The notes under the pieces were generated by a model. It was not told the DNA's origin. It worked only from the letters and a program-made list of their open reading frames with translations, and did not search any database. Positions 1,427 to 34,800 of a stretch of 64,000 nt of DNA are shown here, one piece after another. The DNA lies in IMG/VR virus record IMGVR_UViG_3300035666_000005, positions 56,877 through 120,876 of that record; one strand, written 5' to 3'. This DNA comes from a virus. Both the position numbers and the translations under genes were made by a program. Each line of letters opens with the position of its first letter. Position 1 is the stretch's first letter.

Positions 1427-4219
1427 TTAGACGTTTCTAACGGCTTTTTCATATTTTCTAAGATTAGTTTTATTAATAGGAGATATAGAGCCACTATTTT
1501 TTGCCTGTTTAATAGGAATAAAATTTCTTAAATTTTGTTTTAATATATCAATACTTGGTGGAGAAATAATTTTATCTTCTAATACATAATCTGTAAAAAC
1601 TCCATTATCTGTGACACTAATTGACACAGTAGACAAACCATCTTCTAATCCATAAGATGAAGAAAAAACGCCTGCTGACCTAAAAGATGCTCTATTTTGC
1701 ACTTCAGTCATACTATAGCGTGTAAATTCGTTAGCTTTGGACATGTATTGTTCGATAGATTTTTTATCTACTTGGCAATCTGCTCTTGAAGAATTTCTTG
1801 ATCCTTTATTATTCCTAAATATATTTAAATTATCTTCATCAATTTGTTCATAATGATAAATAACTTTAGATGCTTTTCGAATATTTTCTGCGTCGTACTG
1901 TTGAACATATTCAATTTTTGGAAAATATATTTTAAAATTACTACTTGCTGTTGCAATTACATCATAACCTGTTGAGGACCCTTCTGGAGCCTCATCACCA
2001 TAAAGAATTTCTGATGGTGCGCCACTTGCAGTAGTTCTAGAAAATGATTCTACGGGAGTATGAATTATTATATCAGAATTTGCGCCAATTGTTAAAACAA
2101 CATATTTAGCATCTTCTCCTAATCCATAGTTACATATTTCATTAATTTGAATTTCTCCAAAAATATCATGCTCTATTTCATTTTTTACTGGTTTTCGTTT
2201 AGATTCTTTTGGATGTTCTGTAGAATTTTTAATATCAAATTGTACTTTATAAGCGTCTAAATTTCCTTTTCTCACTATATATAAACGAATTTGTGGATCA
2301 TCTACTGCTTCTCTATATATATCAAAAAGAAGATCAGGCCGACCATCTCCTTGGGTAAATTTTGATGGTATTTGTCCTGCATACCAATCGAATAAGTCTT
2401 TATACCATTTTGCAAAGTCTTGTTCTGGTTCCCATTTTGGTTCCCGTTCGTGTAGTATAAAACCTTTTACTGTGAATTCTTTCTCCTCTGGATCATTAGA
2501 ATATGTATCTAATTGGGTATCATATTCGTCTTCCGCACTACTGATTTCATTATCTAAATTTGAAATAAAAGAACCTTCTTCATGACCAAAATCAAAAATA
2601 CTTAAATTCTTTAATTGGGAATTTTTATAGTACCAACTACCATTTCCGTCAGGACCTTCTATTGTAACTTCTGTTCTTGAGTTAGATGCGTTAGGTATCG
2701 TCGTTTCATAGTCTTTTATCCAATACTTGCCCAAAAAATTTCGAGCCAATTCTGTTTCTCTATCTCGTTCTTTATTATATAAATCTTCATTAGATTTAGC
2801 AATGAAAAAGTAATAATTAGGATTATCATCGGAACCTCTTGTTGTAGATCCGTTTAGACCTAAATTTAAAACATCTCTTTGTTCTTTAGATAACAAATCG
2901 CTTAGCCTTGCAAAATCAGCTCTATCATCACTATTTTCGCTATCAGGACTTAAGACCTTTAGCACTTCCATATTTCCAAAAAAAGATAATGTTTTTGCTG
3001 GTAATTTTCCGGAAGAAGCTCCTTGCCCACTAGAAGCTTTTTGTTGTACAAATTCATCTAATTTAGAAGAGTCGAGAATACCATAATGATAAAACCAAAG
3101 TATTGCATCCCTCATTTCTAAAGAATAATAACTTAAAGCAACAGCCAATTCTTTAGCTTCGAAATCTTTTAAATTGGAACCCTCTCCGCCAGACTCTCCG
3201 CCAGACTCTCCGCCAGACTCTCCGCCAGACTCTCCGCCAGACTCTCCGCCAGACTCTTCGTCAGACACTTGGCCGTCACCACTATCAAAAGACCCGTCTT
3301 CTGCAAGAGCACCAAGGGTCAAACAATTTAAATTTTCTAAAGTTGATTGTTGACAAGTATAAGGCTCTACGTTTCCTTGTCTACTAAAATAACCAATAGA
3401 TCCTTGTGTATAAGTATTCTCTACCGTTCCTCCGTACTCTAAATCTATTAAATCATTATCACTTTTTAAAGTACTTTCAGGTGGAATATTTATTCTATTT
3501 TTTCTACTAATAAATTTTAGTTCGTTTTTAAATGGGTCCCAGAAAAACGCCAATCCTAAATCAGAACACCAGCTACTTAATACTTGCCTTAAAGGTCCGA
3601 TATGATTAGATTTATATGAAGAATAATTACTTGCATTAAAAGAACAATTAAAATTATTTGATATCGCTGAAATTAATTCATTAAAAGTATAATAGACTTC
3701 AAAAATACTAAATTCTGATAAAACAGGGTCACAAGCATTCTCATATTTATTTGGAGGCATTTCGGGGCAAGGGTCGCATGGATCAACTTGACCATCAACT
3801 TCTTCATATTCAACCGTTGAGTCCAAATCTTGATCGCATGGATGATAAGCTTTTCCAAGAATTATTAAACGAGGAGCATTACGATTATTTTTATAACCCC
3901 ATTTATTCTGTAAACCGACGTAATAACGATCTAAATCAACACTTTGATCTGAGTAACTTAATTCTAATATTTTTCTATCAGGACTATTTTTGAGTTGATA
4001 AGAAGTTAAATAACCTTGAAATTTAAATTGTCCAATATCAATAGACTGTGGACGATCATATCCCAAACTAGATTGTGGATTTGCATAAACTCCCCGTTCA
4101 TTAACAACGCTAATAGTTAATTTTGAAGGGCTATCGCCACCATTAAAAGACCAATTTACATCAAAAGGCATTCCACCAAAAAAATTTCCACGGATATTAT
4201 TAACATTAATTACCTTCAT
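1427..4219 (-). CDS. Tail hub / baseplate-hub-like protein with a Gly-Ser-Glu linker
   Basis: 930 residues. The N-terminal 270 residues are beta-rich, with phrases typical of tail hub proteins (a short 'fold the field' barrel, then LELSYSDQSVDL and FWDPFKNELKFISRKN), as in gp27/gp44-like or gpJ-like tail-tip proteins. Residues about 318-346 are a Gly-Gly-Glu-Ser linker encoded by a 12-base tandem repeat. The rest is a large soluble domain with an Asp/Cys-containing section. It lies between the TG-rich proteins on either side and downstream of the tape measure, the normal place for the hub that opens the tail end. No lysozyme or peptidase motif was recognised. The hub assignment is by position and general character. 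Confidence 0.5.
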   Translation of the reverse strand: MKVINVNNIRGNFFGGMPFDVNWSFNGGDSPSKLTISVVNERGVYANPQSSLGYDRPQSIDIGQFKFQGYLTSYQLKNSPDRKILELSYSDQSVDLDRYYVGLQNKWGYKNNRNAPRLIILGKAYHPCDQDLDSTVEYEEVDGQVDPCDPCPEMPPNKYENACDPVLSEFSIFEVYYTFNELISAISNNFNCSFNASNYSSYKSNHIGPLRQVLSSWCSDLGLAFFWDPFKNELKFISRKNRINIPPESTLKSDNDLIDLEYGGTVENTYTQGSIGYFSRQGNVEPYTCQQSTLENLNCLTLGALAEDGSFDSGDGQVSDEESGGESGGESGGESGGESGGESGGEGSNLKDFEAKELAVALSYYSLEMRDAILWFYHYGILDSSKLDEFVQQKASSGQGASSGKLPAKTLSFFGNMEVLKVLSPDSENSDDRADFARLSDLLSKEQRDVLNLGLNGSTTRGSDDNPNYYFFIAKSNEDLYNKERDRETELARNFLGKYWIKDYETTIPNASNSRTEVTIEGPDGNGSWYYKNSQLKNLSIFDFGHEEGSFISNLDNEISSAEDEYDTQLDTYSNDPEEKEFTVKGFILHEREPKWEPEQDFAKWYKDLFDWYAGQIPSKFTQGDGRPDLLFDIYREAVDDPQIRLYIVRKGNLDAYKVQFDIKNSTEHPKESKRKPVKNEIEHDIFGEIQINEICNYGLGEDAKYVVLTIGANSDIIIHTPVESFSRTTASGAPSEILYGDEAPEGSSTGYDVIATASSNFKIYFPKIEYVQQYDAENIRKASKVIYHYEQIDEDNLNIFRNNKGSRNSSRADCQVDKKSIEQYMSKANEFTRYSMTEVQNRASFRSAGVFSSSYGLEDGLSTVSISVTDNGVFTDYVLEDKIISPPSIDILKQNLRNFIPIKQAKNSGSISPINKTNLRKYEKAVRNV
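3183..3266. repeat. 12-base tandem repeat encoding a GGES linker
   Basis: Six identical copies of tctccgccagac run from 3183 to 3254, followed by one degenerate copy. The repeat stays in frame inside the hub gene. It is locally GC-rich compared with its AT-rich surroundings and is likely to vary in length by slippage. Confidence 0.95.
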
Positions 4220-9312: not shown

Positions 9313-12300
9313 TCATCTAGTTCTCGGTGCAACGCGTGGCAATATCCCCTGTCTTTCTGCGGAAGCGACCATTTCTGCAGCGCGACCATATTTCTGATCC
9401 ATTTCGCTTTTGATTTGAGTAATCAGTGGACCGACTCTTGCTTCAATTTCTGAACCGAGTTCTTTTGCGTAATCTTGGGTTTTTCCTCCGGTCTGGGCTT
9501 CGTTTACGGTTAAACCGCCCAAGCTAACAGAAACCGCAGAAAATTCTGGAACAGAATTGGCAAAGTTGGGAATGTACATACGATTAGCCATTGCCATTCT
9601 TTCTTTCGCAATATTATTTTTTTCTTGTGGTGTATTAAAAGTTGCCATTCCTTCGGGATTATTTAATCCCTGGACTTCTGGTTGACGTTTTTGATAAACT
9701 TCGTTTGGAGCAAAGCCAGCATTGACTTCGTCCATAAATGAATTTATTTTAGGCAAAAAGCCTTCTGAGTAATTTTTAATTCTAGCGTTTGCGTTATTTT
9801 TTTCCATTTCGCGCAATACTTCTTGTGCTGGCCGTCCATCAATAAGCCCAGCCCCGCCAGGACCATAAGTGGGCTGCTCAGAATTTAAAGGGGATCCCGT
9901 TTTTGGGTCAAGACCAGCAGCAATCATGGCTCTATCATAGGCGGGATCAGATGGACGATTCGTCCGACCTTCTGCTAAGACTTCTCGCGTTGGGCGACCG
10001 TCAATAAAACCTTGACTACGTTGATCCTTTGGAATTCCTACGATTTCATCGATTACAGATTCGTTTCTAGCTCTTTGATATAAAGCTTCTTGATCTCTTC
10101 CGTAAGCCATCGCTCTATCATAACCCTCATTCGGATCTATTCCCTGTTTAGCCCACTCTGCATAAGCTTGTTTTACAGGATCATTCTTTTCATGCTTTTC
10201 GTAAATTTCTCTCAGTGACTCATATCTGCCTTGTTCATATAAGCGTTTGAATTCTTGTGTTTTCGCCATCAAAGCCCTTTTTTGGTCCATAGATTGGCGG
10301 GTTGGCCTATTATAAAAACCTTCTTGGCCAGAAAGTGCTTGGGTATAAGCTTCTACCAAGCTTTGTAGCATGAATTTGGCATTTGCTTGGGTAGTTCTTT
10401 CTGCGCGGCGAATTTCTGTTGTGGGTTTTATTCCGGCGCGGTCTGTAGATGTAGCGATATTAAATGTTCCGCCAGCCCCAGGTCCGCGCAAACCAAGCCG
10501 TTGTGCATCAACAGTAAACGTACCCGCTCCACCATATTCATCAATTTCATAACGATCACCAGTCATTTCATAACTTCTTGCTAAAGTCTCGCGTCCTCTT
10601 TTAATAACTGCTTCTGTTCTTTTAATAACTGCTTCTGTTCTTGCTCGTTCTTTAGCCCTTTGAGCGGCTAATTTATCTCTTGCCATCATTTGTTTATCGC
10701 TTTGGCGAGATTTGTTCCATTCTTTTTGTCTATAAAATAAAGTACTTAAATTATATAATTCTCTTGGGTTCAAAAAGTCGCTTGCGTTAGCTCCGGTTTT
10801 TCTAAATTCTGAAACTAAAGGTTCAGCAGCCTTATCATAAGATTTTTCTATTTCATTTATTTTTTCAAGAGTTTTGTCACGTTCTTTTATTAAATTATTT
10901 AATTGATCATTATCTTTATATAGTGATGGATCCCATCCAAAATATTCTTTTAATCTACGATCTCTTTCGGGGGAAGTTAAATCTAATTCTGCCAAATTGT
11001 TCCAAGCTTGTTTTGAACGATTTTCGTCCCAGTTAGCTCTTTTTGCCATGTGATTATAAAAGCTCTTTTTTTTCTCTTCCTGAAAAATGTCAACAAGAGT
11101 ATTGAGTTCAGTTTTTGACTTCGTTAAAGGATCTAACTCTTTTTTATATTTTTGATTTATTTCGTTTGCTTGTTTGATAAGACTATAAGGTATTTCTGGC
11201 ATTGGCACAAAACCTTCTGCGAAATTTGGAATATAACCTTCCGCCATGTTTTTGAAAGGATTTTTTATAATTTCCGGCTTTTTCTTTTTCCTGCGGATAT
11301 ATTTTCCGTCTTTATCAAAATAAGGATTTGGTTTAAATTTCGGATTTTTGAGAAGAAAAAGCTCGTTTCGAAGTGCCTGCTTTTTGCCGTAATCTTTATC
11401 TTGATAACCAAAGTCACCAGGTTCTGGCGTGCGAGGAATCTCATATTCAAGCTCAGAGATTCTTTGGTATAGCTCCCACTCTGGAGTATCCAAAGCACTC
11501 ATGATGCTTCCCATCCCACTCGTTATTCTTTGATTCGATGATGACCCAGAAATGCCCGACTTTGGAACAAAACCTTCCGCCATGTTTTTGAAAGGATTTT
11601 TAATTTCCGGCTTTTTCTTTTTCCTGCGGATATATTTTCCGTCTTTATCAAAATAAGGATTTGGTTTAACGCCATCTTTTGTAAGAATTTCTGCTTTTGG
11701 ATTTTGAAGAAGAAAAAGCTCTCTTTCAAGTTGTTCTAATTCGACTCTTTGCAGATATGATACTGGGGGTGTTAATTGTTTAATTTTTGTTTTAACTGAT
11801 AAAATCCTACTTTCTAATTCGTGACGTGGATCGTCAAGATATTTATCAAGTTCTGTCGTATCGAGTTTTGGCAACGATCCTTTTGCCGCGCGTTGCATAT
11901 CACGAGTTAAAAGAGCATCTTCTCCGGTCCCCATGTAATTTTTAATTAATTGTTCTCCTATATTCGCAACAACAGGTGCGCCATTAAAATTGGGTATGAA
12001 TGTGGGACGATCTGATGGGCGTGCGCCACCAACGCCTCTTTTTACGTCGCGCTTTTCTGCGATCATTGCAGGAATGGCTTCTAAAGGAATCGATCCAGAC
12101 GAATATGTTTTCGGAAGTTCTGGCTTTGGTGCAGTTCTATCTATAACGGGTTTTTCAGTTGGCAGGGTTGCGTTAGAAAAAGGATCTTGTAAAAATTTTG
12201 CTATTTTTAAGTCAGCACTATTTTGCGTATTTTGAATAGCCTTTAAAATTTCTTCAAGAGTTTTATTCGCGGCAGAAAATTGCAAAGATATAATTTTATT

Positions 12301-15300
12301 AGTATCCCCCGCAAGAAGCGATAGAGCGCTATCACCACCTTCGCCGAGTAATTTTTGTAATTCTGGCGGGAGTGAAGATTTTGCCTGTTCAATAAGTTTT
12401 TGATTTAATTCTCCAACTTTATTTTCGCCTTCTACTTGTTGTGTCGCAACTGTTTTACTATAACGTTTAATAAGTTCTGCATCAGATAATTGAGCAGCTT
12501 CCGGCTCCCCAATTTGTTCGGCGATTGATCTCCTAAAGCCTTCTAAGATTTCTCTTCCAGCCTCTCCTTCTACTCCGCCAAGTCCACTGATGACATTCGT
12601 TAATTGATTTTCAATATCTAATGCCCTAGCATCACGAATTGCGCTAATAACCGCGCTATTTTGACCTAACTCGGGGCCAAGGTTACGCCCAGTAATTTTA
12701 CTTAATTCGCTAACAACTCTTTGCAAGTTCCTACCAACTTCAATAATGCCTTTTTCTCCAGTTGGTTCCCCTATAATTTTTAAATTTGCAACGGCTTTAT
12801 CAAGACCTTCTGTGATACTGATATCATCATTAATAAAAGCCTGCAAACCACCAAAAGCACTATTAATAGAGGTTATTAGTTCGCGTAAACTTTCTTGAAA
12901 TTTTTGATTGGCAAGAATTGTTTTTTGCTCGATTAAAACTGCTTTATTTTTTACGAGTTCTTGATTAGTTTTATTTATGGCCTCACGAATAGCGTCTAAA
13001 CGTTTTTCACCTTCGGGGTCACCTTCGGGAATTTGTAGTGCTTGTGCAATTTCAGATAATTTAGCTTCTACGTCAAAACCAGTAAAAGTTGTCGGGTCTC
13101 CGATATCCAATAAACTACGAAACTGCTCTATATCAAAACCTTGTTTAACTGCTTCAGCTAAAACTCCTGCGGTTTCTAAATTTGCTTCGGCATTTTTTTG
13201 TGCATTATCGTCTCCGCCGATTGTACTCAAAGCTGCAAAAGATTGTCTTTGTTGTTCAAGAAATGCGCTACCAATTAAACTAATTGTTTCCCCAACAGAA
13301 TCTTTTATCGTATTGGCAAAATCCCCTTCTATTCTAAGAAGCTCTCCTTGTGTTTTACTGTCTGCCCGTCCAGCAGGGGTAGTTATTCCAAAAAGTTCTT
13401 CTTGAACGGCTTTTGTTTCAAATTGCGATACGCCGATGTTTGTTCCAGATTTTCTAATAGATGATTCACCCAAAAGTTGTAAATCAAGGGCAGACTGGCT
13501 TTGTCGCGCTAATTTCGCATAATTAGATTGTACGGTTTGTAAAGTTTTAGTTATTAATGCTATTACTTTATTGTTTTCACCGCTATTTCTCCCCGTCGCC
13601 TCTAAAGACGCTTTTAATTTATTTGCGGGGTCCGCAAGTTCGGCTATTAATTTTAAACCAACGCTAGGATTAAGTTTAAGAACAGCAACAAGATCATTAA
13701 TATTACTTTTACTTAAACCACTAAGAGGGGCTGTTTGAGTTAAAAGGTTTTCAAACTCTTCAAATATTTTATTCGCTTCATCTGTTGCGAAACCGGTAGG
13801 GCCGCCATCTGTTATTAAAGACCTCCGAGATATTTCCGATAATTGATTTATGCTATTTTCATCTAATTGCGTAATATTAATAATATCAGAAAAATTTTCT
13901 CCAATTTTGTCAAATTGTTTTTCAGAAATATTACCAGTAGATCTAGGCAGGGATTCAACTAAACTTGTTACAGCTAAATTTTTTTGCTGCGCTAGTGTAT
14001 TTTCTAAAACAGCATTTGTATTTTCTCCGATTACTTTTTGTAGAGATATAAAATCTTGATTTATTACAGCGGCGCTAGCTCCAGAAACTAATTCCGGAGT
14101 ATCTCTAAATTCTTTTCTAATAAATGAAAGTAAATCGGCTTCTAATTGGCCAGCTCTCTCGCCTTGACCAGCTTCTCTTAATTGTTTAATCTGTTCAAAA
14201 CTAGTTTGAACTTTTTGTCCCGCGTCATTTATCTTTGTAAGATTTTCAGAAGCCTTTTGTGCGGCGGCAGATAATTCTGGAATATCGGTAGACGCTTGTT
14301 TAATAACATCTATTAGCCCAAGCAAAGCTCCAGCGCTACCACCAATTGCCGCGCCAACAAGTGGATTTGGTGCCAGCATTGCCCCAAGACCAGCAAAAGA
14401 TCCCACTTGACCCAGAGCGCTAGCCCCAGCACCTAATGTTCTATCTGCTTTGGTTTCTTTCCCAATGGCATTCGCAATTGTTTCTGCAATAATTGGAGCT
14501 GCGATGGTTAAACCAATACCGCCTGCGCCAATAGCTGCGCCAGCTCTTTGACCACCTGTAGCTCCGTATCTTCCTTCTAACCCTCGAGCTTGGGCCTCTT
14601 CACCTGTTATTTTTCCCATTGCGACGAGTTGAGTATTAGCTGCTTTTTGAGCCTTTGTTAATTCTCCTGTTACCCGACCAGCTTCTTTATTTTTTTGAGT
14701 TAATTCAGTTAAACTTTGTTTATAAGAATCTCCAAAACCTTGAAGGCCAAAACCTAAAAATCCAATTTGAGTTGCAAGAGCCCCGAGTGAAGATCCTAAA
14801 TCTGCTGCTTGGGTATCTTCTGGTGCGAAGTTTGGAACAAAACCGCGAGCGAGACCTTGGGAGGCCGCCGAATTTTGAATCGCGCGCTTTAGACCTTCTG
14901 GATGATCTTTTTTAATCATCGCATTAAAATTAGACGATTGTCCGGGCTGGCGAACATATTGCATTCCTTTGTATTCGTCAAGCACAGCCCCTTTTCCGGC
15001 TTTTTTCTCTGTCTGTATAGCTCTTTCTCTAGCTTCTGTAATTGTTTTAGCAAAATTTGGAATAAAGCCAGCAGCTTTTCCTACAATACCAAATCTATCC
15101 CTTAAAGCTTGTCTTATCGCAACACTTCCAGTAACCCCCTCTTTTCTTAATTGGTCTACTGCGGCAGATCTTTCTTTAAGATAAGCGGCTCCAGCTTTAC
15201 CACTAGTTTTTTGAACAGTTGCTCCAGGTTTAGTTTCATTAAGAAGCTTTTGTAAAACTTCATTCGTTAATTCTGGAGATCTTTTTGCATCATATATCCC

Positions 15301-18300
15301 AGGAGCATTATTAAATATTGATCTTAGTCTTGGACTGATCTTACGAAAATCAATTCCGGCGTTCTGTTTTCTAACTTGATTCTGTAACAATGTTGTAATA
15401 CCGCCTTCAAAAGCAACACCTACAGCGCCTTTTGCGGCACCAGCGTTTGGAAGTTCATCGGCAGATTTTAAGAAATTAAAACCACCCAATGACTGACCAA
15501 ATTGATTAGCTTGTTTTACTAAGAAATCATCTATCTCTGTATCTAAATCTGGTAGTTGTGATTTAAGTTTGTCTTTATTTATTCCTGCTACTGGAATATT
15601 ACCTGTATATTGTTGTTTTAAATATGTTGCAGTGGCTGGCGCTAATTCATATGGTCCAGAAAGCCCAGGATAAATAAGAGATAAAACTTTTTTACCAAGT
15701 TTATTTGGAATTTTATCTAAATTTCCTAATTGAATTGGAGGGTTTTTTGTTTGGGCAAAATTTGGGATAAAGCCAGAAGCTAAATTTTTAAATGGAGCAT
15801 AAGATAAAATAATATTTTTTAATTTTAATTCATCAATAGTTCTATTTTTATATTTACCTCCAGCAGTTTGACCTTCATATTGTAAAGCTTTTGCGATTAA
15901 TATATTATCTGAAACTTTTCTTTGTGTTATTTTAGATTCTACTAAATAACTACCCCCCTGTTTTTTGACTAAAAAGTCCGCCCCAAATAAATCACCTTGC
16001 TTTTCTGCTACGCGACCTTTAGAACCAAAACGTCGCTGGGAATCTATTTCCCCCATTGCCCCTTTAATATTTGTATTATTAGAACGATCTTTTTTGGGGT
16101 CTAATAATGTTTGTGGTTTAATTTTATCTGTAAATTTAGAAATTGGTATTCCGCGATATTGCGAATTTTGGAAAATTGAGGCAACAGAAGAAGGATTTGA
16201 AGAAGCTTGATTTCTTATATTTTTAATAATATTATCTGCTTCTTTAGTATATTCTTTTACATTTTTAGGTAATGGTAATCTTTTTATGTTTGGCCTAAAA
16301 TATTCATCTTTTATTCCTTTATCTTTCGAATCTCCAACATTATATAAGTTTTGCAATAACCCTGCGGATCTTGACGCTTGTTTTTGTAAATTAGCAATTG
16401 TATCAACCGCGAAATTTGGAATAAAACCTTTTGCTTTATTTCTATCACTCTTATCTAAAATACTTCCACTTTCGCCATTAGCGATCATCTTTGTCGCTTC
16501 TTTAATTCCGTTTCCATATTTTGGAATTACTGCTGTTTCGCCTGTATTGGCAAAATTTCTTATTTGTAATTCTTGATTATTTGCTTCAAAAGATTTGCCC
16601 CCAATTTTTCCTACACCACGAACAGCCTTAACATTAGATGTAGCTCCTAATACTTTCGCTTGAAACTCTTCAGCAAAATTAGGAATATACCCACCAGCTT
16701 TTCCAGGTTTTGAAGTTTTTGCAACGGGAACTCCACCAGCAACTGTAACACTACCAGACCGAATAAATTGTGACGCAATTTTTGCAGAAATAGCTTCTTG
16801 TTTTTGTAATTCTAAAGTTTGTGCTCTTAAACTATTTAATAAAATTTCAGCGCCTTTATTTAAACCAGCGCTTCCTTGCTGCATTAATTTAAATAGTTCT
16901 GGATTTTTTTGTAAAATTTGTGCTACACTTTGCTGTAATTGCTGTTGTTGTTTAGAAGCTGTATTTAAATTTAAAAGTTCTTTTAAACTTCCAGTCGCAA
17001 ATTTTGCCAAATCTGAAAAAAGTTTAATAAAAATTCCGCCAATTAGTGCAAGTCCTGGGCCAGCAATTACTTGACCTAATCCATCTAAAATACCTTTTCC
17101 TAATGTGGCTCCCACTCCTTGCCCATCAGATTCATTAATACCACCAAGAATCTCATTCGTATTACCTACAACCCTATCAAAAGCTGGGCCAAATAATCTC
17201 TCACCAATTCCAGCCCCAGCCTGTTTAGCATTTTCTCTTAAAGCGTTTAATTGGGCAGCGTAAGTTTTATTTAATTCTTCATTACGACGAATAGCTTGGT
17301 CAGTAGTAGAGGCAGCGACCTGTAAAGCGTTATTGTATATAGAATATTCTTTACCTAAGTCTGCCAATGCAGATTTTAAAATGTTAATTTGGAATACGCC
17401 GCCAACTTTTTCTGCGACCTCTGCTTGTTGTAACGTTCCAAGTTGATCGTAAACTTTAGCAAGATCTGTTAATAAATTAATAGTACTTTTAATTTCTCCA
17501 GAAGAATCTCTTGTATTAACTCCCAAGCCTTCTAGTAAATCAACAACTTTAGTTCTTTGAAGTCTTGTGAAAATAGTTTTAAAGGAGTTACCGATTACCG
17601 CGCCACCACGAGCAGTTGTTTGTTGAGCCGAAGTAACAATGGCTATGAGTTCATTTAACGAAACGCCTGATTGAGCCGCACTACTACCAACACGACTAAT
17701 TGCTTCTGCAAGATCTGCAGAACTTACCGCAAAAGCTGCATCAACATTAGCAAACTTATTAACAATTTCTGTCGCCGTTACGGCTTGGCTAGCAAAAGAG
17801 TTTACTGACGCGGTAAGAGCTTCAACACTTTTAGCGGCATCCAATCCACTCAAACGAGAAAGAATTAAGGCCTCGTTAGTTCTTTTTAATGTTTCTGCGA
17901 CACCCAAACCTTGACGAGAAAATTCTGTAGCGGCTTTGGCAACTTCTGCGAAACTTTGCCCAGTATTTTTAGCGATACTAAATAAATTAGAACCAAATTT
18001 ATTTAATTCAGAAGAAGAGACATTTAAAATAACATTAATATCTGCTAAAGCTTTTTGGGTTTCTATGACAGAGCTGGCTAAAGCAGTAAAAGCTCTTTGT
18101 ACTCCAAAAATAATTCCAGCACTAGCACCGAAAGCGATAACACGCGCATTAGAAGCATCTAACGATTTAGTAAATTCATTTACTTTACCAGTAATCCTTC
18201 CAAGAGGCTGGTCGCCCCTTGTCTTTAAATTAATGTTGTAAGAACGACTAACAAGCTTTTGAATGTCTTTTTCAGCCTGTCTTGTATTTGCGCCTACATC

Positions 18301-18318
18301 AATATTAATAGCAGCCAT
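9313..18318 (-). CDS. Tape measure protein with embedded nuclease-like segments
   Basis: 3001 residues, very long for a tape measure. Residues about 50-400 match the TP901-type tail tape measure core (RQGLGVAETLKRTNEALILS, NSFKTIFTRLQR). Hydrophobic helices lie near 400-440 and 1225-1335. The peptide G(F/Y)(I/V)PNFA recurs at residues 543, 631, 849, 1084 and 1159. Looser copies occur near 2106, 2249, 2360 and 2915. The 631-849 segment holds E757, D781 and E794-S-K796 spaced as in PD-(D/E)XK nucleases. The 849-1084 segment holds E971, D990 and D1010-A-K1012. The C-terminal third is charged and repetitive. It determines tail length and is normally ejected ahead of DNA; a cargo role for the inserts is inference. 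A GTGTAA element and an AGGAAAAAGGA stretch precede the ATG. Confidence 0.9.
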   Translation of the reverse strand: MAAINIDVGANTRQAEKDIQKLVSRSYNINLKTRGDQPLGRITGKVNEFTKSLDASNARVIAFGASAGIIFGVQRAFTALASSVIETQKALADINVILNVSSSELNKFGSNLFSIAKNTGQSFAEVAKAATEFSRQGLGVAETLKRTNEALILSRLSGLDAAKSVEALTASVNSFASQAVTATEIVNKFANVDAAFAVSSADLAEAISRVGSSAAQSGVSLNELIAIVTSAQQTTARGGAVIGNSFKTIFTRLQRTKVVDLLEGLGVNTRDSSGEIKSTINLLTDLAKVYDQLGTLQQAEVAEKVGGVFQINILKSALADLGKEYSIYNNALQVAASTTDQAIRRNEELNKTYAAQLNALRENAKQAGAGIGERLFGPAFDRVVGNTNEILGGINESDGQGVGATLGKGILDGLGQVIAGPGLALIGGIFIKLFSDLAKFATGSLKELLNLNTASKQQQQLQQSVAQILQKNPELFKLMQQGSAGLNKGAEILLNSLRAQTLELQKQEAISAKIASQFIRSGSVTVAGGVPVAKTSKPGKAGGYIPNFAEEFQAKVLGATSNVKAVRGVGKIGGKSFEANNQELQIRNFANTGETAVIPKYGNGIKEATKMIANGESGSILDKSDRNKAKGFIPNFAVDTIANLQKQASRSAGLLQNLYNVGDSKDKGIKDEYFRPNIKRLPLPKNVKEYTKEADNIIKNIRNQASSNPSSVASIFQNSQYRGIPISKFTDKIKPQTLLDPKKDRSNNTNIKGAMGEIDSQRRFGSKGRVAEKQGDLFGADFLVKKQGGSYLVESKITQRKVSDNILIAKALQYEGQTAGGKYKNRTIDELKLKNIILSYAPFKNLASGFIPNFAQTKNPPIQLGNLDKIPNKLGKKVLSLIYPGLSGPYELAPATATYLKQQYTGNIPVAGINKDKLKSQLPDLDTEIDDFLVKQANQFGQSLGGFNFLKSADELPNAGAAKGAVGVAFEGGITTLLQNQVRKQNAGIDFRKISPRLRSIFNNAPGIYDAKRSPELTNEVLQKLLNETKPGATVQKTSGKAGAAYLKERSAAVDQLRKEGVTGSVAIRQALRDRFGIVGKAAGFIPNFAKTITEARERAIQTEKKAGKGAVLDEYKGMQYVRQPGQSSNFNAMIKKDHPEGLKRAIQNSAASQGLARGFVPNFAPEDTQAADLGSSLGALATQIGFLGFGLQGFGDSYKQSLTELTQKNKEAGRVTGELTKAQKAANTQLVAMGKITGEEAQARGLEGRYGATGGQRAGAAIGAGGIGLTIAAPIIAETIANAIGKETKADRTLGAGASALGQVGSFAGLGAMLAPNPLVGAAIGGSAGALLGLIDVIKQASTDIPELSAAAQKASENLTKINDAGQKVQTSFEQIKQLREAGQGERAGQLEADLLSFIRKEFRDTPELVSGASAAVINQDFISLQKVIGENTNAVLENTLAQQKNLAVTSLVESLPRSTGNISEKQFDKIGENFSDIINITQLDENSINQLSEISRRSLITDGGPTGFATDEANKIFEEFENLLTQTAPLSGLSKSNINDLVAVLKLNPSVGLKLIAELADPANKLKASLEATGRNSGENNKVIALITKTLQTVQSNYAKLARQSQSALDLQLLGESSIRKSGTNIGVSQFETKAVQEELFGITTPAGRADSKTQGELLRIEGDFANTIKDSVGETISLIGSAFLEQQRQSFAALSTIGGDDNAQKNAEANLETAGVLAEAVKQGFDIEQFRSLLDIGDPTTFTGFDVEAKLSEIAQALQIPEGDPEGEKRLDAIREAINKTNQELVKNKAVLIEQKTILANQKFQESLRELITSINSAFGGLQAFINDDISITEGLDKAVANLKIIGEPTGEKGIIEVGRNLQRVVSELSKITGRNLGPELGQNSAVISAIRDARALDIENQLTNVISGLGGVEGEAGREILEGFRRSIAEQIGEPEAAQLSDAELIKRYSKTVATQQVEGENKVGELNQKLIEQAKSSLPPELQKLLGEGGDSALSLLAGDTNKIISLQFSAANKTLEEILKAIQNTQNSADLKIAKFLQDPFSNATLPTEKPVIDRTAPKPELPKTYSSGSIPLEAIPAMIAEKRDVKRGVGGARPSDRPTFIPNFNGAPVVANIGEQLIKNYMGTGEDALLTRDMQRAAKGSLPKLDTTELDKYLDDPRHELESRILSVKTKIKQLTPPVSYLQRVELEQLERELFLLQNPKAEILTKDGVKPNPYFDKDGKYIRRKKKKPEIKNPFKNMAEGFVPKSGISGSSSNQRITSGMGSIMSALDTPEWELYQRISELEYEIPRTPEPGDFGYQDKDYGKKQALRNELFLLKNPKFKPNPYFDKDGKYIRRKKKKPEIIKNPFKNMAEGYIPNFAEGFVPMPEIPYSLIKQANEINQKYKKELDPLTKSKTELNTLVDIFQEEKKKSFYNHMAKRANWDENRSKQAWNNLAELDLTSPERDRRLKEYFGWDPSLYKDNDQLNNLIKERDKTLEKINEIEKSYDKAAEPLVSEFRKTGANASDFLNPRELYNLSTLFYRQKEWNKSRQSDKQMMARDKLAAQRAKERARTEAVIKRTEAVIKRGRETLARSYEMTGDRYEIDEYGGAGTFTVDAQRLGLRGPGAGGTFNIATSTDRAGIKPTTEIRRAERTTQANAKFMLQSLVEAYTQALSGQEGFYNRPTRQSMDQKRALMAKTQEFKRLYEQGRYESLREIYEKHEKNDPVKQAYAEWAKQGIDPNEGYDRAMAYGRDQEALYQRARNESVIDEIVGIPKDQRSQGFIDGRPTREVLAEGRTNRPSDPAYDRAMIAAGLDPKTGSPLNSEQPTYGPGGAGLIDGRPAQEVLREMEKNNANARIKNYSEGFLPKINSFMDEVNAGFAPNEVYQKRQPEVQGLNNPEGMATFNTPQEKNNIAKERMAMANRMYIPNFANSVPEFSAVSVSLGGLTVNEAQTGGKTQDYAKELGSEIEARVGPLITQIKSEMDQKYGRAAEMVASAERQGILPRVAPRTR
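10598..10639. repeat. Short in-frame tandem duplication in the tape measure
   Basis: Two adjacent copies of a 21-base stretch (tttaataactgcttctgttct) encode RTEAVIK twice in a highly basic helix. Confidence 0.85.
11237..11668. repeat. Two near-identical ~97-base copies inside the tape measure
   Basis: About 11237-11334 and 11573-11667 are direct repeats differing mainly by a 3-base insertion. Each encodes a peptide running from KPNPYFDKDGKYIRRKKKK to KNMAEG(F/Y). Both copies are in frame, so this is a recent in-frame duplication in the basic C-terminal region. Confidence 0.9.
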
Positions 18319-18356: not shown

Positions 18357-19379
18357 TTATCTATTTTCACGCGCCTTTAAATACTGTTCTTTTTCTAAAG
18401 TTCCTCCAGCTTCTTGAGCCATTTGCAATAATGTTTTGCCACCTTTTAATTTATCTATCTGTGTGCCCATCTTTTTTAAATCTTCGGATGTAGCTCCAAC
18501 CGTGCTACTAACCATATTATTGCCACCAGTTTTTTTTCTGCTTTTGATAGGAGATCCCTTTTTATCTGGGGTTTGATTTTCTACCCATAAGACAAATTTT
18601 TCGGCGTCAGCCACAACATCATCTGGAACAGGCTTGCCATTTTCTGCGTAATTTCTAATTAAATTCTTATACATTTTACCATATACTAATAAATCAATTT
18701 GATATTTAGTGCATAAAACTGTGGGTTTACCCCAAAAACTATAAGCGTCTTCATTCAAATAAACTAAATTTTGAAAAAATCCAGAAGCCGCGACATGTTT
18801 TAAACTCAAAGCGCCAAAAACATTCGAATACTTGTTAAAAGCCTCTTTTATTTTATCAGAAAAACCGTCTGATAAATTGTAATATTCTTCTTGAGAGAAA
18901 GCTTGTTCTGTTAATTCTCGATTTTTAAAGGTTAAAGCAATGACTGTTTCATCTAAAAATCGTTTTGATGTATAATCTTCTGCCGTAAAGCTTACAATTT
19001 CATTACGTTCTTTGGCAAAAGTCATTAAAATACCTTGAGTTCTACGAATTTGTTTATCTATGCCTTCCCGCTGAGAAGGGAGAACTAACTTGGATTTTGT
19101 TTTGATTAAATTTGTAACGGTCTTTTTTAATCCCTGTATCTCCATTTCCTTTTCTTTTGACCACCACCCCTCCTCTATGGCTTCTCTAATTTTTTCTTCT
19201 TCTGTCGGAAGCCCTTGACGCTGAACATCTTTTAAAATTAAATCATAATTATTATAAATACTAAAGTATTCAGAAAAACTAGGATGTTTAAAATAAAATA
19301 TTTTTTTACTAATCTTTTCTTCTGAAAAGCCTTTTGCTATTTCATTATAGATACGACCATACTCAAAATCTTTATCCAC
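18357..19379 (-). CDS. Probable tail assembly chaperone (second of pair)
   Basis: 340 residues, mostly charged and helical, with a lysine-rich tail (SPIKSRKKTGG) and no catalytic motif. It lies between the first chaperone candidate and the tape measure, the classic position of the G/GT tail chaperones. The only good start is GTG at 19379. The previous stop is TAA at 19381-19383, giving TAATGTG, so reinitiation is likely. The upstream frame is closed four codons before the GTG, so an ordinary ribosomal frameshift fusion is not supported. Function is inferred from position. Confidence 0.5.
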   Translation of the reverse strand: MDKDFEYGRIYNEIAKGFSEEKISKKIFYFKHPSFSEYFSIYNNYDLILKDVQRQGLPTEEEKIREAIEEGWWSKEKEMEIQGLKKTVTNLIKTKSKLVLPSQREGIDKQIRRTQGILMTFAKERNEIVSFTAEDYTSKRFLDETVIALTFKNRELTEQAFSQEEYYNLSDGFSDKIKEAFNKYSNVFGALSLKHVAASGFFQNLVYLNEDAYSFWGKPTVLCTKYQIDLLVYGKMYKNLIRNYAENGKPVPDDVVADAEKFVLWVENQTPDKKGSPIKSRKKTGGNNMVSSTVGATSEDLKKMGTQIDKLKGGKTLLQMAQEAGGTLEKEQYLKARENR

Positions 19380-19380
19380 A

Positions 19381-20232
19381 TTATGCTGGAGTTACTGGAG
19401 TTGAAGAAACTTCTTCAGTATTGATAGTTTCAATTTTTTCAACAACTACTTTTTCTTCAACTGTTTTTTCAGTAGAAACTATTTCAGTTTTTTCTTCGGC
19501 TTGGTCTTCAACAACAACTTCTTCAGATTCTTTAATTAAATTTTGATAAAAACTATCAAAGTCTTCTTCTGTTTCTACTTTACCTAAGAACCATAGAGTA
19601 ATTAAATAAGTTAAACGTCTTATAGCGATAAGATTAATATTGTTTTCACTATTTAAATCTTCAAAAATATCATATGAATTTAATTTTTCATCGAAAGTTT
19701 CTCCATCAAAAAATGAAACATATTCACCATTCTTTTCAGTATAAGAAGTAAATAATACCCACCATAAAATGGTACGATTACGGGCTTTCGCTTCCGCAGT
19801 GTTCTCAAAAATTGAAATTTGTGAAGATTCAAAACTTTGAATTTCTTTTCTAATTTCATCTAATTCAATAATAATTTCGTCTGAGCGTTTTTTTTCTGCT
19901 TCGGTTCTTTCGCTTTCAGTTTTTATTAAAATTGATTGTAATTCAAATGACGCGTCACGAAATTTTAGAAGAAGTTCTCCGTATACTTCTCTTTCTTTTT
20001 CACTAATACTTCCCCCGCCATTAGATAAAATAGTTCCCCATGCGGCTTTAGGTAAGACCCCAGCTTTGGCAAAACGTGAAACTTCTTTAGCGTAAAATAA
20101 TTCACCGTCTTCTTTTAGTTTACGGTTGGGTTTTAATAGGGCAAGCTTGGCTTTTTCTTCTACGGTTTCGCCATTATTTTTATTAACCTTATTGGTTACT
20201 TCAAATTTATACATCCACGTTTTGTTAGTCAT
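19381..20232 (-). CDS. Probable tail assembly chaperone (first of pair)
   Basis: 283 residues, helical and acidic, with a Glu/Val/Thr-rich C-terminal tail (EKVVVEKIETINTEEVSST) that looks disordered. The central section resembles the folded domain of tail chaperones that bind the tape measure during tail assembly. It sits between the tail tube and the tape measure. A short upstream gene follows the tube terminator. Assignment is by synteny and not by a recognised domain. Confidence 0.5.
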   Translation of the reverse strand: MTNKTWMYKFEVTNKVNKNNGETVEEKAKLALLKPNRKLKEDGELFYAKEVSRFAKAGVLPKAAWGTILSNGGGSISEKEREVYGELLLKFRDASFELQSILIKTESERTEAEKKRSDEIIIELDEIRKEIQSFESSQISIFENTAEAKARNRTILWWVLFTSYTEKNGEYVSFFDGETFDEKLNSYDIFEDLNSENNINLIAIRRLTYLITLWFLGKVETEEDFDSFYQNLIKESEEVVVEDQAEEKTEIVSTEKTVEEKVVVEKIETINTEEVSSTPVTPA

Positions 20233-26305: not shown

Positions 26306-28126
26306 TTATTTGATTTTTACGCTATTTTTATTGAAAGCGGCACCGATTTTTTCAACCAGTGACACTTCTTGAGGAGAGGAAGCGTTTGGAAGGACTTCTT
26401 CCGTTACCTCTGCACTCGAAATTACTTCTTCTACAGTTTTTTCTTCGCTAGCTACAACTTCGGAAGTTTCGGAAGCTTTTTCTTCTTTTACTTCTTCCTT
26501 CATTTCTTCTTTTTTGTACTCAGCTTTAGCGGCTTTCTTTTTAGCGGCTGCGAATGTAGAGAACTTCTTATACCATTTTTCGAACTGTTCGTCGTTTTCA
26601 ATGGCGTTTAAATCTTCTGCGATGATACTACGATCTTCATCAGTAAGATCGAACTCTTCATCAAGCAAGGCCATACGGCGTTGGAAATTGGCTTCAATTT
26701 CTTTAGCTTTGAGGTCTTCTTGAATCTTCGTGAATTCTTCTTTTACTTTTTCACTATCAGCCTTGATTGCTTCGAGATCTGTTTTCAATGTTGAAATTTG
26801 ATCTTCGGCAGCTTTAAGTGCTGTTTCTTTTTCTTCAACTTTTGATTTCCATTCTTGGGCAAGTTCTGCAATACGATTCGAAATAAATTCACGAACAGCA
26901 CTAGCAGCAACTTCCTTGATGGAATCGTCCGTAATATCATCAATATTTTTTAGTTGCATATTATTTTTTACATTATTATTTTCTTCAGGGACACTTTTTT
27001 TATTCATTTTAATTTCAGAAGACTCTACTTCATTTTCTTCTTCATCATCTTCTTCTTCAATTTCTTCATAATCTTCACTACCACATTTGGGGCAAACTTC
27101 GGCTTCAGAGCCTTTGTATCCGCATTTAGCGCAAACATATTTTTCTTCTTCGGCTTTAACAGTTTCTTCTATTTGCGGCTTATCATAAGAAATAACTACA
27201 CCACTAACTTCGGCGGCTGGAGTATTGGTAAAACCAATTCCTAATGGAAGAACATTTCCTTGAAGATTTAAAAGAACCATCTCACCATCTTCAGTGAATC
27301 CGTTTCCACCAAATACTTTAAGGCGATCTTTTAATTCTACAATATCTTCTTCTTTCTCAATAATAGTTGCATCTGCTAAATTTTTATTACCTTTAGCAAC
27401 ATTAAATTCATTGAACCCGAGTTCCCAACTTGCACTAACAGAAAGATATTTATTAGAAGATGGGTCGCTACTCTCAACGAGTTCTGAAGCAAAATCAGGA
27501 TTTACAATTTTCCATACATATCCAGAAAGAACTACATTAAACGGATCTTTCATCGCTTTAACCTCTTCCAAAGTCAAAGGTTTGCTACTCCCAAATTCGC
27601 TGAAGCCGTATCCAGTACAAACACCAACAACGACTTTACGGTTATGTTCAATATTAAAAGGCTTATTAATAAAATTTTCAACCATTGCTAGTGCAACGTC
27701 TGTACTAATAATGTGTCCATTTTTATTTCCGCGATTAACAACGAAAGCATCAAAAGCAACGCCCATCAAATCACGATTCACATCAAGATCAACATTCTTA
27801 GGAAGATATTCTTTTAATTGGTCAACAGATGCCACTGCTAAATATTTGTCCTCGTCAGATGAAACCATCGCCTGAACTATAATCCCGTCAAAACGAATTG
27901 AATATTTAAAATCTTTCATTGTATCCATTGGTAAATTTACACTTTGTTCTTCTAATAGGGCAACATTTTTGAGTTTGTTGCTAATAACAATTTTATTGTT
28001 TTCAAATTTATCTAGCTCCATAGCGCACAAAGAGATAGGGCGCGAGAAAGAAAAAAGTAAATCGGACAAGTCAAACCCAGTTAAGGAGTCAACATTTTTT
28101 ACTGGCTCATCATCGTAAGTCGGCAT
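26306..28126 (-). CDS. Prohead protease fused to zinc ribbon and scaffold domain
   Basis: 606 residues in three parts. Residues 75-330 resemble a prohead serine protease: a His in FNIEHNRKVVVGVC (about residue 161) and a Ser in NKYLSVSASWELGF. Residues about 335-360 hold a four-Cys zinc ribbon (CAKCGYKG, then CPKCGSED), followed by a very acidic stretch. Residues 390-606 are a coiled coil with lysine- and glutamate-rich repeats, typical of scaffolding proteins. An internal ATG at 27007 could give the scaffold alone, as Nu3 lies inside C in lambda, but no ribosome binding site is clear. It should cleave head proteins and itself during prohead maturation. Confidence 0.75.
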   Translation of the reverse strand: MPTYDDEPVKNVDSLTGFDLSDLLFSFSRPISLCAMELDKFENNKIVISNKLKNVALLEEQSVNLPMDTMKDFKYSIRFDGIIVQAMVSSDEDKYLAVASVDQLKEYLPKNVDLDVNRDLMGVAFDAFVVNRGNKNGHIISTDVALAMVENFINKPFNIEHNRKVVVGVCTGYGFSEFGSSKPLTLEEVKAMKDPFNVVLSGYVWKIVNPDFASELVESSDPSSNKYLSVSASWELGFNEFNVAKGNKNLADATIIEKEEDIVELKDRLKVFGGNGFTEDGEMVLLNLQGNVLPLGIGFTNTPAAEVSGVVISYDKPQIEETVKAEEEKYVCAKCGYKGSEAEVCPKCGSEDYEEIEEEDDEEENEVESSEIKMNKKSVPEENNNVKNNMQLKNIDDITDDSIKEVAASAVREFISNRIAELAQEWKSKVEEKETALKAAEDQISTLKTDLEAIKADSEKVKEEFTKIQEDLKAKEIEANFQRRMALLDEEFDLTDEDRSIIAEDLNAIENDEQFEKWYKKFSTFAAAKKKAAKAEYKKEEMKEEVKEEKASETSEVVASEEKTVEEVISSAEVTEEVLPNASSPQEVSLVEKIGAAFNKNSVKIK

Positions 28127-28169: not shown

Positions 28170-28865
28170 TTATAATCTTGCTGCTTGGATATGCATCGCA
28201 TCCATATTTCTTTCTTTTAACAAACTAACCCAGCCTTCAGATTCTACAATTTTCCAAAAATCATTATAAACCGGTTTTGCAAAAGATGCCTTATCTTTCC
28301 CCCATTTTAATTGATTATTATCTGGATCTAAATCAATTGCCGCTCCCCAGCTATGTATGCTCCAAGCTGATCCCCCGCGCATACGACGAACATTTAAACA
28401 CCCGCCAAAAATATCTAAACGCAATTTAGATATTTCTTTTTCGCCATATATTTTCAATGTATTTTCAAAAATTGTATAAAGTGATTTCGAAACTTTTTCA
28501 TGACAAGTAATTCGTGTTAATGTTGTCGATGGTGCCCATGCTAATTTAAGTTTATATGGAAGATCTAGTTTAGTTTGATTTTCACCGACTGGTCCATAAA
28601 AATTAACCATACTTGTATAATTTTGTTTTGGCCATTTTTGAGAAAGTGGCGTATTGTTAGAAATATTAGTTACAAGTTTCCAAGTTTTCGGACCTACAAC
28701 CCCATCTGGTTTTAAACCATTTTTAAGTTGAAATTTTATAGTCTCCCGTTCAGTTGCTGGACCAAAAGCCCCGTCAACATAAGGAATTTTATAACCAGCG
28801 CTCTGCAAAAACAATTGCCATTGTTTTACTTCTTCACTCACATCTCCTTTTTGTAAAACTTTCAT
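28170..28865 (-). CDS. Endolysin: peptidoglycan-binding plus M15-type peptidase
   Basis: 231 residues. Residues 1-65 form a PG_binding_1 repeat (LQKGDVSEEVKQWQLFLQSA, ending DGVVGPKTWKLV). Residues 110-231 carry the zinc-site signature of VanY/L-Ala-D-Glu M15 peptidases: SIHSWGAAIDLD (H171, D178) and a final DAMHIQ (H225). It should cut peptide bonds of the cell wall at lysis. There is no signal peptide, so it needs the holin next to it for export. It is the last gene of the lysis cassette. Confidence 0.9.
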   Translation of the reverse strand: MKVLQKGDVSEEVKQWQLFLQSAGYKIPYVDGAFGPATERETIKFQLKNGLKPDGVVGPKTWKLVTNISNNTPLSQKWPKQNYTSMVNFYGPVGENQTKLDLPYKLKLAWAPSTTLTRITCHEKVSKSLYTIFENTLKIYGEKEISKLRLDIFGGCLNVRRMRGGSAWSIHSWGAAIDLDPDNNQLKWGKDKASFAKPVYNDFWKIVESEGWVSLLKERNMDAMHIQAARL

Positions 28866-31837: not shown

Positions 31838-34800
31838 TTAACCTACAATTACATAAAAAGTTGCGGAATCTTTTGGTGAAAGCGCGTTGTATTCGGCCTG
31901 TGTTAATTTTATCATTGTAGTTATTGTATTATTACTACGGATTGCCTCTCCACTTAGGAGCACTCCCGTATTATTTACTAATAATCGCTCATTTGTTATC
32001 CATGTCCCAGATAAAATTCTATTTCTATAATCTAAAGAAATTAGTGTTGTAGTCCAATATAACTGACCTAAATTAAGATCAATTTTTCTATTTGCTCCGT
32101 CATCACCTGATCCACGTATTTCTGGAGCTATAATTACCTGATTAAAGTTTTTAACACCACTTATCGTTTGATCCCCAGTTGTATAAACAACATTTTCTAC
32201 AACACCCGCAGCGGCTTCTCCTTGAAGAAGAACTCCCGTTCCATTTACTGTTGGGCGTGAGACAAAATTTTTTGTTCCGCTTATTGTTTGATTTCCTGTT
32301 GTATAAACAATATTTTCAATAGAAGCGCTAGCACCAGCAGCTTCTCCCTGTAATAATACCCCTAATCCATTGACTGTTGGTCTTTTATTTAAAGATAAAT
32401 TACCATCAATTTTTACGTTTCCAGATATTGATAAAAATTCTAAATTTTGTGGATGCCCAATTTCGAAATTACTTTTATCAGTGGTATAAATAAGCCCACC
32501 ACCATAACCCACGCCATTAGATTGTACTTCGAAATTAGAACCTAATAAAAATATATTTCCACTTTTGTTTATCGCAGCAGCGTTTAAAAATCTTCCGTAA
32601 AGAGGTGCAACACTAGCCGCTTTGTAAGCTGCGTCAAAATCACCCAAAAATGTTTTAGATAAATTCCAACCATTTGTAGGGTTTCCAGTATATGCATATG
32701 CAATTCCCGCATTTCTTGCCAATTGGTCATCACTGCCAGCGCCAATTAATAGAATAGAACCATTACTATTCATTTTTAAAGAAGATCCGAACCCCTGTCC
32801 AGAATTAAAACCAGTGATTACTTGTTTTAAATTCCAAATACTTACAGAATTACCAGTAAATATTAAAACTGCGCCGACAGAATTATCAGAAGAAGAAACT
32901 AATGGAGAATTATAACTTGGGCCACCTAAAGCTATTATAGAAGCATCTTCACTTGCGGCTAAACTACTTCCAAATCTAGGGCCAACTGTAGACCCAAATT
33001 GACTTCCAACCGGGCTTGGAATACCTAATATTTTTTCTTTAAAAGCCCAACCATTTATTCGATTGCCTGTAAATACTGCAGCTCCTCCGGCATTATTACC
33101 ACCGTCATCATCATTTCTAGAAGTTATAATACATATTGTACCATCATAATTTAAATATGTTTGACTACCATATGCATCTCCACCTATTACTGATAATTTT
33201 TGTTTAAAATTCCAACCATTTATTGAATTACCTGTATATAGCCTAATGGATCCGTCAGCAGGATTTGGTAATAAAGAATCGAATGAACTACTAACTCCAA
33301 TAACAGAGGCGTCTTTTGAAATACCTATTGAAGTAATTCCATTATTCAATGATTCATTTAAAATAGAATCTTTTAATTCCCATTTACTATTAGAATTTCC
33401 AGTATAAATAGAAACGACTCCAGTTCTTGAAAAACTATTATTATTAAGCGTCGAACCAATAATTACAGATCCATCACCATTCATGCCGATCCTAAGTCCC
33501 AAATTATCGTCTGGAAAATTACCAGTTATTTTTTGTTTAATTTCCCAACCATTATTTTTATTTTCTGTATAAATTAGAATGGCTCCACGATTATTTGCAC
33601 CTGCGGATGGTCCACCAAAAGCAAGTATATCACCATTATCATTAAAAACTGAAAGATTGTAATTAGCAAATTCACCATCTCCAGTAATTTTTTGTAAAAA
33701 CCTATAATCTTGCTCAAAAACACCCGAATTTATTTTAAAATTATCTTTTGTTAATGCTTCGCCGCTTAAGAGAATTCCACTATTATTTACTGTTAATCGA
33801 TTGTTAAAATTTTTAATACCACTAATAGTTTGATTACCGATATTATAAACTAAATTTTGTGCGTAAATATTCCCATCTATCATTTCGTCTGCTTTAGATA
33901 AATAAATAGGATTATTAAAAGGGCATGCTACAATATATTTTGCATCTGAAGAGATAGAAATTCCCTGCCATTGAATAAGAGCTATACTTGATAATGGAGT
34001 TTTTTCTACCCAAGTTTGTCCATAATTTTGTGAAAAATGAATATTATTATTATTAGAAATAAAAATTTGATACTTTCCACATGAAGACATTCTAATTTTA
34101 TTAATTACTCTATTACTTGTTAATTTCCAAGTATTACCATAATCACTAGAAATATAAATACCATTAAAAGTTCCAGCTGTTTGAAATTGGCCATCGGAAG
34201 ACATTGCCAAATCTAAATAAGTTGTTGTTATGTTTTTTTCTGACCAGGTTTGGCCATAGTCTTGTGAAATAAAGATTTTTCCATTACCACCAGCAACAGT
34301 AATATATCTTCCATCAGAAGAAATAGCTGCACTTACCCATTGAACCGATAAATTTAAATTTCTACTACTCGTGTTTTGTATCCAAGTATTACCATAATCA
34401 CTAGAAATATAAATAAAATTACCATTACCAGCCCCAGCCGCAATTTGATATTGACCATTTGAAGATATGTCTACATAATTCCAAGATGTAGATGGACCCT
34501 TACTTATCCATGTATTTCCATAATCATTTGAAACATAAATATTTCCATTTTCAACAGAGGTTATTTGGTATTTTCCGTCAGAGGATATTCTAACGGATTT
34601 CCAATCCCTAATCTCTTGTCTCTCCCCCCAAGTTTCTCCATAATTATTAGAAATATAAATTCTACCATTACCAATGACTGCTGTTATATATTGACCATTT
34701 GAAGACATAGACACATCTGTCCATAAACGAGCGGTCTCAGTAGAAATCCAATTATCGCCAATATTAATAAGTTTTGTATTATTTTGTGTTAATTTAGTCT

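What the first reader, a model, noticed from the sequence alone, without database searches (positions are those of the whole stretch)
9313..18318. A recurring G(F/Y)(I/V)PNFA peptide divides the tape measure
The same seven-residue core occurs at residues 543, 631, 849, 1084 and 1159, with looser copies near 2106, 2249, 2360 and 2915 (for example YIPNFA at 9559-9576). Copies use different codons (GGT TTT ATT CCA AAT TTC GCG at 16408-16428 versus GGC TTT ATC CCA AAT TTT GCC at 15754-15774), so selection acts on the peptide rather than on a recent DNA duplication. The motif marks segment borders, and some segments look enzymatic. A protease-cleavage or docking role is inference. A prohead protease and scaffold fusion is encoded at 26306-28126.
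Basis: partly seen in the sequence, partly recalled or inferred. Interest (0 to 1): 0.85.

Follow-up and report, generated by a model that had tools for sequence, protein, structure and literature searches.

The report
Tape measure carries peptide-bordered enzyme cassettes
A long tail protein of an uncultured phage family carries, at a fixed place, a row of exchangeable enzyme-like modules separated by one short conserved peptide, which suggests that the tail "ruler" doubles as a cartridge that delivers different enzymes into the host cell.

Summary
The window's 3001-aa tape measure protein (TMP) has eight [FY][IV]PNF copies (0.002 expected). No other window reading frame has it. In IMG/VR, 118 of 120 loci found with the peptide carry it in a long reading frame; 59 of the 60 with a 5' end begin with a TMP N-domain. 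In a motif-blind search with the TMP N-domain, all 73 TMPs read carry 2-12 copies. Seven cultured-phage relatives examined have none.

Full form: A-x-G-[FY]-[IV]-P-N-[FY]-A. Its first copy lies at residue ~530-665. It marks module borders: 70-80% of homology breakpoints fall within 10 aa of a copy, 0.2-0.5% near segment mid-points. Between copies sit a ~70-aa entry box, exchangeable cargo domains and a ~65-aa exit box. The commonest cargo, in 60 of 65 complete TMPs, has an intact E...D...(D/E)xK signature, PD-(D/E)XK-like, although Foldseek, PDB and Pfam find no match. Others resemble nucleotidyltransferases, acetyltransferases and ADP-ribosyltransferases. Hydrophobic segments flank the array.

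Best reading: an effector cassette array delivered with the TMP, the peptide being a processing or docking linker. The architecture is shown; delivery and the peptide's biochemistry are inferred. No evidence links it to the prohead protease.

The parts
9313..18318 (-). tape measure protein gene, 3001 aa
16729..18318 (-). TMP N-terminal domain (residues 1-530; PhageMin_Tail at 116-307), conserved in all 80 motif-blind relatives
17014..17070 (-). hydrophobic TM-like segment before the array (about residues 417-435)
16672..16692 (-). motif copy 1, GYIPNFA, residues 543-549
16429..16671 (-). entry box (residues 550-630), ~60-85 aa module found first in the array of relatives
16408..16428 (-). motif copy 2, GFIPNFA, residues 631-637; homology of many relatives to the window stops here
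15775..16407 (-). cargo 1 (residues 638-848), carries GEID...GADF...YLVESK, a second PD-(D/E)XK-like signature
   Evidence: fold model poor
15754..15774 (-). motif copy 3, GFIPNFA, residues 849-855
15070..15753 (-). cargo 2 (residues 856-1083), nuclease-like domain with E971, D990, D1010, K1012; folded at pLDDT around 90 or more over most of model residues 34-235
15049..15069 (-). motif copy 4, GFIPNFA, residues 1084-1090; point where similarity to L235 collapses
14845..15048 (-). exit box (residues 1091-1158), DHPEGL type
14824..14844 (-). motif copy 5, GFVPNFA, residues 1159-1165; end of the main array
14302..14541 (-). hydrophobic TM-like segments after the array (about residues 1260-1278 and 1321-1339)
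11218..12003 (-). second, C-terminal array: copies at residues 2106, 2249 and 2361 with an entry-box-like stretch (RGVGGARPSDRPTFIPNFN...)
9559..9579 (-). last copy, MYIPNFA, residues 2914-2920

Best explanation
The TMP carries an array of exchangeable effector cassettes. After the conserved N-terminal TMP domain and a hydrophobic segment comes an entry box, then one or more folded cargo domains (mostly PD-(D/E)XK-like nucleases, sometimes other enzymes), then an exit box, then further hydrophobic segments and the long C-terminal part. Each module is bounded by A-x-G-[FY]-[IV]-P-N-[FY]-A. Shown: the fixed position, the borders, module swapping, the intact catalytic signature, the restriction to TMPs and the flanking hydrophobic segments. 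Inferred: the TMP travels in the tail tube and is ejected into the envelope at infection, its hydrophobic segments insert in the inner membrane, and the array between them reaches the cytoplasm where the enzymes act on the host (nucleic acid degradation, modification, counter-defence). The peptide is a linker recognised by one partner common to all modules: most likely a protease that frees the modules, or else a docking site that keeps the chain threaded in the tube.
For: First motif at residue 530-665 in nearly all TMPs with a 5' end. Motif-blind relatives: 73 of 73 TMPs have at least 2 copies, 313 copies in 167,501 TMP residues against 15 looser hits in 400,621 residues of other ORFs. Homology breakpoints: 70-81% within 10 aa of a motif against 0.2-0.5% near mid-segment controls, with motifs masked, mid-points masked, or both. 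Window versus L235: mostly 80-95% identity per 20 aa up to the motif at 1084-1090, then an unrelated exit box. Nuclease-like domain: G, D and K invariant, D/E before xK in 100%, helix E 95% plus D 5%, in 131 distinct sequences, present in 60 of 65 complete TMPs. AF2: core pLDDT mostly around 90 or more, motifs in weak linkers. TM-like segment before the array in 65 of 66 TMPs and within 350 aa after it in 58 of 66, rarely inside (11 of 66). A cytidyltransferase-type cargo passes Pfam's cut-off (34.2 vs 26.7 bits). TMPs are ejected and insert in membranes in phages studied (summarised in PMC13277306).
Against: No fold match for the main cargo in PDB or BFVD and no Pfam, NCBIfam or PDB sequence match, so the nuclease call rests on the catalytic signature. 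ART, kinase, HAD and zincin calls are signatures read by eye. No candidate protease was identified. No cultured phage carrying the array was found, so ejection of this TMP has never been observed. Folded 25-kDa domains may not fit several abreast in a tail tube.
Confidence: 0.6

Rival explanations
1. The motif is a docking peptide, not a cleavage site: each copy binds a groove of the tail tube, of a TMP chaperone or of the TMP oligomer, and keeps large inserted domains in register inside the tube. The modules may or may not be enzymes.
For: A 7-8 residue near-invariant core with aromatic and hydrophobic residues looks like a linear binding motif. The two genes upstream of the TMP are conserved in 77-78 of 80 loci and could be partners.
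Against: Catalytic signatures are kept intact, which a purely structural role does not need. It does not explain why exchanges use the motif as border.
Confidence: 0.25
2. The motif persists as a recombination anchor: short DNA similarity lets cassettes swap, and the peptide is only a tolerated linker.
For: Breakpoints coincide with the motif.
Against: DNA of copies within one TMP differs at 3 of 21 nt in the commonest case, and 109 different 21-mers encode the same peptides. The peptide is conserved, not the DNA.
Confidence: 0.07
3. The segments are ordinary TMP peptidoglycan hydrolases or structural spacers, and the motif is a structural turn that caps each repeat.
For: TMPs with embedded peptidoglycan hydrolase motifs are known (TM4, PMC1796659).
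Against: No hydrolase family matched any array. Modules are unrelated to each other, so no common repeat fold exists.
Confidence: 0.08

Closest known systems
Polyvalent proteins of phages and conjugative elements (Iyer et al. 2017, PMC5512222)
   Same: Several unrelated enzymatic domains in one polypeptide, encoded with virion genes and predicted to be injected with the DNA.
   Different: Those described are not presented as tape measures (the word 'tape' is absent from the paper) and no delimiter peptide is mentioned in the passages read. Here the array has a fixed place in the TMP and fixed borders.
MuF polymorphic toxins of temperate phages (PMC5576092)
   Same: A phage structural domain fused to variable toxin domains.
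   Different: MuF belongs to the DNA packaging module (abstract); the known scheme is not an internal multi-cassette array bordered by one peptide on both sides.
Mycobacteriophage TM4 tape measure with a peptidoglycan hydrolase motif (PMC1796659)
   Same: Enzymatic domain embedded in a TMP that helps infection.
   Different: Cell-wall hydrolase motifs, no array of intracellular-type enzymes and no such delimiter in the abstract.
TMP-related effectors of contractile injection systems, Sle1 (PMC13277306)
   Same: TMP-like delivery part with interchangeable functional domains, loaded in a tail-like particle.
   Different: C-terminal functional domain in a bacterial injection system, not an internal array in a phage TMP.
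PoNe PD-(D/E)xK effectors of type VI secretion (PMC6688995)
   Same: PD-(D/E)xK DNase used as a polymorphic delivered effector (abstract).
   Different: Different delivery system; no sequence relationship was found or tested directly here.

Membership tests
Phage tail tape measure protein (PhageMin_Tail) | Pfam PF10145 / PHROG tape-measure profile above cut-off | tested here: met
   95.8 bits against cut-off 33.2; phrog_4211 3.1e-50
Phage tail tape measure protein (PhageMin_Tail) | Very long protein with hydrophobic segments, largest gene of the late block | tested here: met
   3001 aa, the largest ORF in the window, TM-like segments, conserved synteny
PD-(D/E)XK nuclease superfamily (cargo 2) | E ... 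D ... (D/E)xK active-site residues conserved | tested here: met
   E 95% (D 5%), D 100%, D/E 100%, K 100% in 131 distinct domains
PD-(D/E)XK nuclease superfamily (cargo 2) | Core fold matching a solved member | tested here: inconclusive
   Confident model but no Foldseek match with E<=0.001 in PDB or BFVD
PD-(D/E)XK nuclease superfamily (cargo 2) | Sequence-profile match to a known member family | tested here: not met
   No Pfam, NCBIfam or PDB sequence match; only a weak Cas4 match of one member in PADLOC, E=0.011
Polyvalent proteins | Two or more disparate enzymatic domains in one virion-linked polypeptide | tested here: inconclusive
   Unrelated cargo families co-occur in one TMP, but most enzyme assignments are by signature; only the cytidyltransferase-type domain passes a curated cut-off
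Polyvalent proteins | Injected into the host | not testable with these tools
   needs virion and infection proteomics
Prohead-protease substrate | Same cleavage motif in capsid, scaffold or other head proteins | tested here: not met
   Motif absent from all other window ORFs; no A-x-G-[FY][IV]PNFA copy in neighbouring ORFs of 73 loci

The most novel reading that the evidence does not exclude
A widespread, uncultured phage lineage uses its tape measure as a programmable multi-effector cartridge: a peptide delimiter recognised by a dedicated processing or docking factor defines cassette borders, so that any enzyme flanked by it can be loaded into the tail and released in the host.
Probability: 0.42. 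Interest if true: 0.93.

Novelty: new variant of a known kind. Interest (0 to 1): 0.85.

Why it matters
It would give the tape measure a second job as a delivery vehicle for interchangeable enzymes, help to explain why many uncultured phages have very long TMPs, and supply a sequence signature that finds unknown injected effectors by simple search: everything between two copies. A peptide that lets unrelated folded domains be carried by a phage tail would also be a general rule for tail-tube protein delivery.

Tried and rejected
The single-protein relative search with the whole TMP gave nothing, as did the A2 profile scan; the N-domain alignment worked. Prohead-protease site: rejected, motif absent from head proteins. 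Recent DNA duplication: rejected by codon differences. AlphaFold2 of residues 531-862 failed for lack of relatives (pLDDT 42) and was not used. Foldseek hits to GTPases for the cargo-2 model (PDB E about 0.5, TM-scores about 0.1-0.2) are spurious. Profiles that included the motif drifted to everything and were not used for family claims. Motif hits in cellular genomes are mostly chance single copies (for example the Alicyclobacillus WAIGFIPNFAI family); a few MAG contigs hold arrays (L127, L152, L160, L175, L191). Seven stretches of cultured phages whose TMPs share the N-domain hold no copy of the motif.

Full report
Observation. The minus-strand ORF 9313-18318 encodes a 3001-aa tape measure protein (PhageMin_Tail E=4e-27; several PHROG tape measures). 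Eight [FY][IV]PNF occur against 0.0018 expected from composition, and none is found elsewhere in the six frames of the window. The window is bases 56877-120876 of a 120,876-base IMG/VR contig.

How widespread. In 118 of them the motif lies in a long ORF, 104 with two or more copies. The full consensus is A-x-G-[FY]-[IV]-P-N-[FY]-A, with G at 97%, F/Y and I/V almost exclusive, and A two residues before the G in 76% (S 15%). Of 60 such ORFs with a 5' end, 59 begin with the TMP N-domain, and the first motif lies at residue 530-665 with one exception at 880. The 257-Gb genome collection gave only 89 stretches, mostly single chance copies. To avoid circularity I searched with the N-terminal part of the TMP using conserved patterns that lie outside the motif: 387 relatives, best 80 kept. 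All 73 TMPs read from them have at least two copies, 65 complete ones 2-12 (seven loci were not read because my text filter missed the ORF). The density is 313 per 167,501 TMP residues against 15 looser hits of another form per 400,621 residues of other ORFs. Stretches of seven cultured phages whose TMPs share only the N-domain have no copy of this form, and no named phage matches the array region by tblastn.

Architecture. The order is: N-domain; motif; entry box of 60-85 aa (N-S-A-E or VANSSE type); motif; one or more cargo segments of 110-500 aa; motif; exit box of 58-77 aa (SQIxV..NPxGLxVxNxxDEPxG, or a DHGGL/DHPEGL type); motif; then about 950-1900 residues. Some TMPs have a second array near the C-end (L227, L228, L285; window 2106-2914). 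TM-like segments flank the array: one at about residue 415-430 in 65 of 66 TMPs, one within 350 aa after it in 58 of 66, and few inside (11 of 66).

Borders. With the motif masked, 70% of internal ends of protein homology between arrays fall within 10 aa of a motif position (16% expected at random). With segment mid-points masked instead, or both, 80-81% fall at motifs and 0.4-0.5% at mid-points. The window and L235 are the clearest single case: mostly 80-95% identity per 20 aa through entry box, cargo 1 and cargo 2 up to the motif at 1084-1090, then a different exit box. Other close relatives (N-domain 59-87%) carry different cargo sets. Within a TMP the copies differ at the DNA level, so the peptide is what is kept. 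Some loci come from the same contig in two searches (for example L101/L246); only identical regions were removed before the border test, and breakpoint counts include related pairs, so they are not independent events.

Cargo. 135 of 227 pooled long segments belong to one family. In 131 distinct domains G, D and K are invariant, D/E before xK is 100%, and the helix E is 95%. In the window these are E971, D990, D1010 and K1012. That is the PD-(D/E)XK catalytic signature, but neither Foldseek, PDB sequence search nor Pfam/NCBIfam recognises the family, so membership in the superfamily is not established. The rest fall in 37 clusters. One contains a cytidyltransferase-type nucleotidyltransferase above Pfam's cut-off and others GNAT-like domains just below it; HATPase matches are moderate (best 7.8e-5). 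P-loop, HAD, ADP-ribosyltransferase-like (LYRG..STS), zincin-like (HExxH) and kinase-like signatures are read by eye only.

Structure. AF2 of window residues 846-1170 with 62 sequences gives a compact cargo domain at pLDDT mostly around 90 or more, with the motifs in low-confidence flanks and linkers. The model of residues 531-862 is unusable.

Mechanism. Published work describes TMPs as tail-lumen proteins ejected at infection and inserted in membranes (summarised in PMC13277306). A loop of enzymes between hydrophobic segments could therefore be placed in the cytoplasm. That every module, whatever its family, ends in the same peptide points to one recognising partner. A processing protease is my first choice, docking the second; nothing here separates them. 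The product of 26306-28126 has no recognisable protease match, and the motif is not in head proteins, so that specific link is not supported.

Known systems. Polyvalent proteins (PMC5512222), MuF toxins (PMC5576092), TM4's hydrolase-bearing TMP (PMC1796659) and TMP-related injection-system effectors (PMC13277306) share parts of this. No held paper mentions the peptide in this sense, and I found none describing an internal cassette array in a TMP (the library holds open-licence papers only).

Noticed in passing
L241, L248, L253-L256, L259, L292, L300 (minus strand, ORFs of 1050-1081 aa): A large ORF on the opposite strand carries one conserved G[LIV]YIPN[FL]xGK stretch (YVPN in L248), similar to but distinct from the TMP motif.
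   Followed up: no
window 18357-19379 and 19381-20232: Two proteins directly upstream of the TMP, without solid Pfam matches, are conserved in 78 and 77 of 80 relatives; candidates for TMP chaperones or motif partners. No frameshift signal was apparent at their junction on inspection.
   Followed up: partly
window 31838-35095: 1085-aa protein with BppL_N, BNR/Asp-box repeats and a Phage_tail_C terminus, probably receptor binding.
   Followed up: no
window 28170-28865: Endolysin gene (PHROG 1.9e-76) sits beside the 606-aa putative scaffold/protease gene; not found in the relatives' flanks held here.
   Followed up: no
   Followed up: partly
L127, L152, L160, L175, L191 (genome contigs): MAG contigs with arrays, two of them binned as Flavobacteriaceae/Flavobacteriales: a weak hint at Bacteroidota hosts.
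   Followed up: partly
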